NCBI GenBank assembly: GCA_002171035.2
Contig: NHHO02000011.1
Coordinates: forward strand, 1 to 6,751
DNA length: 6,751 bases
Direction of reading: 5' to 3'
Origin: Candidatus Pelagibacter sp. TMED165
GTDB taxonomy: Bacteria; Pseudomonadota; Alphaproteobacteria; Pelagibacterales; Pelagibacteraceae
Shown here: positions 773-1,062 of the stretch, piece by piece
Position numbering within the stretch: the stretch's first letter is position 1
How the letters are laid out: each line of letters opens with the position of its first letter
Notes under the pieces: generated by a model
Databases searched by the model: none
What the model was told of the DNA's origin: nothing
Seen by the model: the letters and a program-made list of their open reading frames with translations, nothing else
Translations under genes and position numbers: made by a program

Positions 773-847
773 TGGTGGCCTTGGTTTGAATCGCACAAAC
801 GACACATACCTTTTCAGGGTACTGCTCTACTACTGAGCTACAAGGCC
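773..847 (-). tRNA. tRNA-Phe (anticodon GAA), CCA encoded
   Basis: Reading down from 847, the full cloverleaf is visible: acceptor GGCCTTG paired with CAAGGCC, TA at positions 8-9, D stem GCTC/GAGC with a 7-base loop AGTAGTA, anticodon stem GTACC/GGTAT (one G-T pair) with loop CTGAAAA giving anticodon GAA, variable loop GTGTC, T stem GTTTG/CAAAC with loop TGCGATT, discriminator A73 and an encoded CCA. Variable loop and anticodon loop resemble bacterial tRNA-Phe, and tRNA-Phe near infA is a familiar alphaproteobacterial arrangement. Odd points: the T loop has G at position 55, normally pseudouridine, and the D loop has A where G18 is expected, so the usual G18-Psi55 contact is missing while G19-C56 is kept. 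Its first base is also the last base of the infA TAG stop codon. It lies between infA and fhs and is probably cut out of a shared messenger by RNase P and 3' processing enzymes. Confidence 0.95.
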
Positions 848-1062
848 TAACCTCTAAAAGTAATTCTACCTTTAGTTAAGTCGTAAGGTGTCATTTCTAC
901 CGTTACGTTATCTCCTGCTAGAACTCTTATTCTGTTTTTGCGTAATTTTCCAGCGGTATGAGCTAGGATTTCATGATTATTTTCAAGTCTAACTCTAAAC
1001 ATAGCGTTAGGAAGTAGTTCTGTAACCTTACCTTTAAATTCTAATGTCTCTTGTTTAGCCAA
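847..1062 (-). CDS. infA: Translation initiation factor IF-1
   Basis: IF-1 binds the 30S A site during initiation together with IF-2 and IF-3. The 71-residue product is a single OB-fold domain with the family pattern throughout: LPNAMFRVRLEN (17-28), AHTAGKLRKNRIRVLAGD (34-51) and MTPYDLTKGRITFR (57-70). Family members usually have 72 residues; alphaproteobacterial ones commonly end in a form like RITYRFK, whereas this one ends FRG, next to the tRNA gene. The start codon is TTG at 1062, chosen because it gives the conserved MAK start and because AGGA lies 8 bases upstream; the next in-frame Met is residue 21, inside the fold. The hisD stop codon ends directly before the TTG, so translation is probably coupled. 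The stop codon TAG shares its final G with the first base of tRNA-Phe. The identity is certain; the functional effect of the overlap is inference. Confidence 0.97.
   Translation of the reverse strand: MAKQETLEFKGKVTELLPNAMFRVRLENNHEILAHTAGKLRKNRIRVLAGDNVTVEMTPYDLTKGRITFRG

What the first reader, a model, noticed from the sequence alone, without database searches (positions are those of the whole stretch)
773..853. infA stop codon shares a base with the 5' end of tRNA-Phe
The infA stop TAG occupies 849-847 and the first base of the tRNA acceptor stem (G1, paired with C72) is 847. If both are on one transcript, which the packing suggests, RNase P cleavage before G1 leaves infA mRNA ending in TA with no complete stop codon. 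Any one transcript could then yield either a mature tRNA or a properly terminated infA message, and ribosomes on cleaved messages would need rescue by tmRNA or similar. A ribosome terminating at this stop would also cover the 5' half of the tRNA. This may be a real coupling between IF-1 synthesis and tRNA-Phe supply, or simply tolerated compaction.
Basis: partly seen in the sequence, partly recalled or inferred. Interest (0 to 1): 0.7.

Follow-up and report, generated by a model that had tools for sequence, protein, structure and literature searches.

The report
Stop codon shared with a tRNA
In one large branch of the ocean bacterium SAR11, the last letter of the stop signal of an essential translation gene is also the first letter of the phenylalanine tRNA gene, so if both are read as one RNA a single copy cannot deliver both intact, and evolution has kept this arrangement for a long time.

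Summary
ARAGORN and Rfam both start tRNA-Phe at 847, and the infA stop TAG is 849-847. The adjacency is widespread in SAR11. The one-base overlap marks one deep subclade: 54 distinct loci have it, 80 others have 1-8 nt spacers. A HisD tree needs one gain and one re-opening. While overlapping, the junction changed about 18 times more slowly than spacers do, partly because few indels are tolerated.

First, infA codons 63-70 form a hairpin just upstream of the tRNA, kept by codon choice; that signal is weaker in other SAR11 and absent in alphaproteobacteria without the tRNA. Second, the subclade carries a deeper overlap: recJ runs 22 nt into tRNA-Glu and stops in its D-loop (31 of 42 loci), with a strongly constrained element inside recJ.

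Best reading: an old, locked-in compaction of an mRNA-tRNA unit whose gene end doubles as a tRNA leader. Regulatory coupling of IF-1 to tRNA-Phe is not shown. Closest precedent: selB/selC overlaps (PMC8124441).

The parts
773..847 (-). tRNA-Phe (anticodon GAA), CCA encoded; G1 = 847
847..1062 (-). infA, translation initiation factor IF-1, 71 aa, TTG start
847..849 (-). infA stop codon TAG; its G is G1 of the tRNA
854..875 (-). core hairpin in infA codons 63-70 (CTAAAGGTA GAAT TACTTTTAG), kept by codon choice in the overlap clade
849..882 (-). extended stem predicted for this window's leader alone; ends one base before the tRNA
   Evidence: window row; the fold of the longer piece, shows the core hairpin and the acceptor stem together but not this whole extension
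1063..2367 (-). hisD, directly upstream; its stop codon ends where the infA TTG begins
2..757 (-). fhs (formate-tetrahydrofolate ligase), start of the gene, 15 nt behind the tRNA

Best explanation
In SAR11 the tRNA-Phe gene usually sits as the tail of an infA (mostly hisD-infA) unit, with at most a few bases between. In the ancestor of one subclade the spacer was lost (for example TAA-T-GGCC becoming TAGGCC), so that the stop codon and G1 share a base. The two genes are most likely read as one RNA; RNase P cuts before G1, and each RNA yields either a complete infA message or a tRNA. The cost is tolerated: tmRNA/SmpB can clear ribosomes on cut messages. The state is hard to leave because only few insertions keep both the stop codon and the tRNA. 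The infA tail doubles as the tRNA's 5' leader: its codons keep a small hairpin that holds the leader away from the tRNA fold and may also shield the 3' end of the cut message. Shown: overlap, clade distribution, slow change, codon-held hairpin, rescue genes. Inferred: shared transcript, RNase P cut, hairpin role.
For: Overlap in 54 distinct loci; spacers 1-8 nt in 80 others. The HisD tree of 112 rows needs 2 changes for the overlap label. Spacer-state changes per unit of tree length: 18 in 6.76 in the sister clade, 5 in 2.01 in the re-opened subclade, 1 exit in 6.89 while overlapping. Synonymous variation in codons 61-71 is 0.51 of expectation in the overlap loci (p 0.0013) and 1.00 in 77 spacer loci; tree-counted steps 29 against 64 (p 0.0023). 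Hairpin energy -6.29 against -2.56 kcal/mol for synonymous shuffles, and -4.09 against -4.03 in alphaproteobacteria without the tRNA; the infA-end window is the lowest of 80 windows tested in the overlap loci. Leader-tRNA pairing 0.003 against 0.017 in shuffles, 30 of 54 loci sampled. tmRNA/SmpB present; RNase P RNA in 17 of 20.
Against: No transcript data, so a shared RNA is inferred from spacing alone. A -10-like TAGAAT lies at -21 to -16 in 41 of 54 overlap loci, so a weak internal promoter is not excluded. No compensatory double change was seen in the stem: support comes from codon choice, and the rows are related. Spacer loci also show somewhat fewer synonymous steps at the infA end (86 against 107, p 0.014) and a weaker hairpin signal, so neither is exclusive to the overlap. 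Slow change is partly mechanical: at a quarter of the spacer rate one exit or fewer has P = 0.057. The tree is a quick one from HisD alone.
Confidence: 0.6

Rival explanations
1. Functional coupling: RNase P cleavage is a deliberate switch that trades IF-1 for tRNA-Phe. A ribosome terminating at the stop shields the tRNA 5' half; once cut, the message is non-stop and IF-1 is tagged and destroyed.
For: Retention across a deep clade with one exit; a structured, codon-held leader beside the cut site; a second CDS/tRNA overlap in the same clade; rescue only by tmRNA/SmpB as far as found.
Against: Sister SAR11 with 1-8 nt spacers would keep a stop codon after the cut. One subclade re-opened the junction and kept the hairpin signal. 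Slow exit is partly mechanical. No expression data.
Confidence: 0.12
2. Internal promoter: the constrained end of infA is a promoter for tRNA-Phe, most tRNA is made from short transcripts, and infA mRNA is rarely cut.
For: TAGAAT at -21 to -16 in 41 of 54 overlap loci; TATAAT at -22 in 12 of 77 spacer loci. The recJ tail before tRNA-Glu has a strong unstructured constraint with TTTATT at -44 and TAATAA at -21, 17 nt apart, so a tRNA promoter inside a gene looks likely in this clade.
Against: I saw no -35-like hexamer at 16-18 nt in the consensus, and codons 57-60 show no reduced variation (0.97). The scan finds no pair in the infA tail on the minus strand, and 11 sites against 10.1 expected in 600-2600. 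The third bases of T63 and T68 are nearly fixed, which the hairpin explains and a -10 does not.
Confidence: 0.2
3. Pure neutral compaction: overlap, codon bias and hairpin are by-products of descent and AT pressure, with no role.
For: SAR11 genomes are compact (recalled); the overlap rows are related; the permutation tests are not fully phylogenetic.
Against: Tree-counted synonymous steps at the infA end are less than half of those for the same residues drawn from the whole gene; stem positions use GGT and ACT against the gene's own habit (GGT 46 of 54 at codon 65 but 33 of 162 at codons 11, 38 and 50; ACT 101 of 108 at codons 63 and 68 but 76 of 216 at codons 6, 14, 36 and 58, though 43 of 54 at codon 6).
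Confidence: 0.2

Closest known systems
selB/selC overlaps in Alphaproteobacteria and others (Mukai 2021, PMC8124441; passages seen)
   Same: A bacterial tRNA gene overlaps the upstream reading frame on the same strand; conserved in groups, lost in some; in some lineages the stop codon lies inside the tRNA; the proposed idea is that folding and processing of the tRNA represses the full-length upstream protein.
   Different: There the whole tRNA-Sec, or about half of it, is inside the frame. Here it is one base for infA/tRNA-Phe and 22 nt for recJ/tRNA-Glu, and both tRNAs decode ordinary codons. A codon-held leader hairpin is not in the passages seen.
tRNA punctuation of animal mitochondrial transcripts (recalled; related titles seen only in the listings)
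   Same: A tRNA excised right at the end of a reading frame; the upstream message would end in UA.
   Different: In mitochondria UA is completed to UAA by poly(A) tails (recalled). No such step is shown here; at most one PF01743 nucleotidyltransferase per genome was found.
Bacterial mRNA-tRNA operons such as tufB with upstream tRNAs in E. coli (recalled, not looked up)
   Same: tRNA and mRNA share a transcript and are separated by RNase P and other nucleases.
   Different: Those have spacers as far as I recall; here the stop codon and the tRNA share a base.

Membership tests
CDS/tRNA overlap of the selB-selC kind | upstream same-strand reading frame includes tRNA bases | tested here: met
   1 nt in 54 distinct infA loci; recJ 22 nt in 31 of 42 loci
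CDS/tRNA overlap of the selB-selC kind | entire tRNA gene nested inside the frame | tested here: not met
   infA stops at G1
CDS/tRNA overlap of the selB-selC kind | overlap conserved in a clade but dispensable | tested here: met
   two changes, read as one gain and one re-opening, on the HisD tree
CDS/tRNA overlap of the selB-selC kind | tRNA processing represses the upstream protein | not testable with these tools
   needs RNA and protein data
tRNA punctuation with completed stop codon | message left by excision ends in U or UA | tested here: inconclusive
   the sequence would leave UA before G1; that the cut takes place is inferred
tRNA punctuation with completed stop codon | A added to the 3' end gives UAA | not testable with these tools
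   needs 3' end sequencing; PF01743 in 16 of 20 genomes, one copy each
trans-translation substrate | tmRNA and SmpB in the genome | tested here: met
   overlap genomes: tmRNA 10 of 14, SmpB 12 of 14, at least one of the two in 14 of 14; draft genomes, and the window's own genome is not held
trans-translation substrate | non-stop infA mRNA and tagged IF-1 | not testable with these tools
   needs experiment

The most novel reading that the evidence does not exclude
One SAR11 subclade uses mitochondria-like tRNA punctuation in a free-living bacterium: RNase P excision of tRNA-Phe (and of tRNA-Glu from recJ) makes the mature 3' ends of infA and recJ messages, the codon-held hairpin protects the infA end, and the leftover UA is completed to UAA by 3' tailing, so that IF-1 output and tRNA-Phe output are set by one cleavage.
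Probability: 0.06. Interest if true: 0.9.

Novelty: new variant of a known kind. Interest (0 to 1): 0.6.

Why it matters
It gives a natural series (overlap, re-opened, spaced) in some of the most abundant cells in the sea in which to ask what a cell pays when a tRNA must be cut out of an essential gene's stop codon. It adds two ordinary tRNAs (Phe and Glu) to the bacterial tRNAs reported to overlap coding sequence, and shows gene ends evolving under a second code (leader hairpin in infA, an unstructured element in recJ). Gene callers and tRNA finders that forbid overlaps may misplace such ends.

Tried and rejected
Other overlap lengths at infA: none seen; spacer classes are -1 and 1-8 (gap 0 not seen in the 134 close junctions) plus one Rhodobiaceae locus at 221. 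The two pattern scans presuppose a short spacer, so only samples infA without that bias; there, every SAR11 record with tRNA-Phe near infA had a gap of -1 to 7.

Generic sigma-70 promoter in the infA tail: not supported, not excluded. Stop-codon rescue by ArfB, which would release complete IF-1 from a UA end: no third RF-1-domain protein, at most 2 per genome in 20 genomes. Leader selected only to avoid pairing with the tRNA: small effect, 23 of 30 sampled overlap loci better than the median shuffle, 15 of 30 sampled spacer loci; the hairpin explains more. A hairpin at recJ/tRNA-Glu: not found. Apparent downstream overlaps are first-start-codon artefacts of open frames that begin inside tRNAs. 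A -10 nt overlap at tRNA-Asn in G003 rests on a 65-aa ORF and was not pursued. hisD was absent or not matched beside 19 of 135 infA loci with tRNA-Phe within 400 nt, and the fhs fragment was found downstream in 14 of 135, so neither is a fixed neighbour. One spacer locus (L240, genome G214) lies outside the HisD tree for want of a hisD match and was counted with the other spacer loci, although its recJ overlap suggests it belongs to the overlap clade.

Literature searches, open PMC library only. No title or abstract start listed there showed the infA/tRNA-Phe or recJ/tRNA-Glu overlap in SAR11. (Pelagibacter, infA, tRNA) counted 26 papers, of which 10 were listed and none opened; the only paper opened, by passages, was PMC8124441.

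Full report
OBSERVATION. On the minus strand infA runs from a TTG at 1062 to a TAG at 849-847 (TIGR00008, 113 bits). tRNA-Phe(GAA) runs from 847 to 773 with encoded CCA (ARAGORN); Rfam places its 5' end at the same base. The acceptor stem is a perfect GGCCTTG/CAAGGCC. So the G of the stop codon is G1 of the tRNA. Upstream, hisD ends exactly where infA begins; downstream, fhs begins 15 nt after the tRNA. No whole genome is held for the window.

DISTRIBUTION. In the kept alphaproteobacteria outside SAR11 tRNA-Phe is not next to infA, apart from one Rhodobiaceae locus with it 221 nt away; SAR11 records have it -1 to 7 nt behind the stop, except L018, titled Pelagibacterales, which has none. A pattern scan of 397 genomes of the order of G001 matched 122; 44 of these are the exact TA|G junction by my reading of the list, of which 43 were fetched and all 43 confirmed (the 44th, G001, is L001). 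A wider pattern matched 263 of 397, with part of the list not shown and some matches that do not look like infA. The fetched loci gave 175 distinct infA loci: gap -1 in 54, 1 in 17, 2 in 2, 3 in 14, 4 in 7, 5 in 16, 6 in 16, 7 in 4, 8 in 4, 221 in 1, no tRNA-Phe nearby in 40. Gap 0 was not seen. The patterns favour short spacers, and I chose overlap loci and their near relatives to fetch, so these are not frequencies.

HISTORY. On a HisD tree (112 of the loci, quick method) the overlap label needs 2 changes: all 37 overlap rows and 10 spacer rows form one clade (support 100), and the 10 spacer rows are one subclade inside it (support 98). The simplest account is one gain and one later re-opening. 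Three re-opened loci (L015, L084, L085) still have TAG followed by one base and then GGCC, as expected for an insertion into the fused junction. The window is placed on the line next to the re-opened subclade (support 94, not starred); its best match has 68% HisD identity, so the divergence is large. Spacer states changed 18 times in 6.76 units of tree length in the sister clade and 5 times in 2.01 units after re-opening, but once in 6.89 units of overlapping lineages, an 18-fold difference. Part of this is mechanical, since only insertions that begin with A or G keep a stop codon; at a quarter of the free rate one exit or fewer has P = 0.057.

THE INFA TAIL. In overlap loci the last 11 codons have half the synonymous variation expected from the same residues elsewhere in infA (0.51; p 0.0013); in 77 spacer loci the ratio is 1.00. 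Counted as steps on the tree: 29 against 64 expected (p 0.0023) in 37 overlap rows, and 86 against 107 (p 0.014) in 72 spacer rows; so the spacer group is not entirely free of it. The fold of the window suggests why: codons 63-70 make a hairpin of 9 pairs beside an intact acceptor stem (the z of -2.59 there is for the whole 123 nt, tRNA included). For the leader alone the stem extends to one base before the tRNA. Forty-five of 54 overlap loci form all 8 core pairs; 10 of 77 spacer loci and none of 38 alphaproteobacteria without the tRNA do so. Against synonymous shuffles the energies are -6.29/-2.56 kcal/mol (overlap, 25 distinct leaders, 19 in the best 10%), -6.57/-2.75 (re-opened, 7, 4 in the best 10%), -5.15/-3.03 (other spacers, 40, 16) and -4.09/-4.03 (alphas without the tRNA, 37, 3). 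Among 30 infA and 50 hisD windows of overlap loci the infA end is the lowest, z -1.44, with hisD sd 0.28 and minimum -0.65; in other spacer loci it is also the lowest, -1.05, though next to infA windows of -0.92 and -0.85 (up to 25 sequences per window). Stem positions use codons against the gene's habit: GGT 46 of 54 at codon 65 but 33 of 162 at three other glycines; ACT 101 of 108 at codons 63 and 68 but 76 of 216 at four other threonines, one of which is itself 43 of 54. No double compensatory change was seen.

EXPRESSION. No sigma-70-like pair lies in the infA tail; the scanned 600-2600 has 11 sites against 10.1 in shuffles. TAGAAT at -21 to -16 occurs in 41 of 54 overlap loci without a -35 partner that I could see, so an internal promoter is possible but weakly supported. 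N-1 before the tRNA is A in all 54 overlap loci, forced by TAG, but T in 64 of 77 spacer loci; bacterial RNase P is known to favour U there (recalled). tmRNA was found in 16 of 20 SAR11 drafts and SmpB in 18 of 20; for the 14 overlap genomes among them 10 and 12. RF-1-domain proteins number at most two per genome (two in 17, one in 3), in open frames of 344-378 aa, so no ArfB was seen. One PF01743 protein was found in 16 of 20 and RNase P RNA in 17 of 20.

A SECOND OVERLAP. A survey of tRNA neighbourhoods in five genomes showed that most tRNAs have no upstream reading frame reaching into them; besides tRNA-Phe the clear exception was tRNA-Glu behind recJ (RecJ_OB, PF17768), in the three overlap-clade genomes surveyed. 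Of 42 loci with recJ and tRNA-Glu, 31 have recJ ending 22 nt inside the tRNA at the TAG of the D-loop, so that the last RecJ residues are coded by the tRNA; two (L331, L332) have the same one-base TA|G overlap as infA/tRNA-Phe; one (L257) ends directly before the tRNA; eight more distant SAR11 relatives (30-38% identity) have 36-50 nt (recJ was found in 26 of 30 and 17 of 30 genomes, G391 in both). The recJ frame just before the tRNA is under very strong synonymous constraint (12 codons, z -6.1, against 74 other windows with minimum -0.90; 33 rows, two of which have their stop before the tRNA) without a hairpin. The nearly fixed bases include TTTATT at -44 and TAATAA at -21, 17 nt apart, which looks like a tRNA promoter inside recJ (inference). 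So overlaps recur in this clade, with different contents in the gene ends. Whether the window's own genome has this overlap is unknown.

CONCLUSION. The best explanation is an ancient, locked-in fusion in an mRNA-tRNA unit with a gene end that doubles as tRNA leader. Regulation of IF-1 by tRNA processing is possible, untested and not required. The closest published case I found is selB/selC (PMC8124441, passages seen), whose author proposes that tRNA processing represses the upstream protein.

Noticed in passing
L247-L256, L258-L272, L327-L330, L333, L334: recJ reading frame runs 22 nt into tRNA-Glu and stops in the D-loop; conserved through the overlap clade, with a one-base version in L331 and L332.
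   Followed up: partly
L159 and homologues, 15-50 nt before tRNA-Glu: Very strong synonymous constraint in recJ codons -17 to -6 with TTTATT and TAATAA 17 nt apart; candidate embedded tRNA-Glu promoter.
   Followed up: partly
L149 723-1511: A family-2 glycosyltransferase ORF (PF00535) ends 10 nt inside tRNA-Val(GAC) in genome G002; not tested in relatives.
   Followed up: no
L130, L148, L163, L282, L312: tRNA-Trp follows a 396-399 aa gene (looks like EF-Tu from its C-terminus, recalled, not searched) at 5-10 nt in the five genomes surveyed; in L130 the leader ACTCC could pair with the tRNA 5' strand GGAGT.
   Followed up: no
L295: A 339-aa ORF ends with TAG directly before tRNA-Ser(GGA), gap 0, in genome G358.
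   Followed up: no
window 2364-2807 (-): DUF2948 protein (PF11164, 141.7 bits) between murA and hisD.
   Followed up: no
window 1062: infA starts with TTG in the 54 overlap and 77 spacer loci examined.
   Followed up: no
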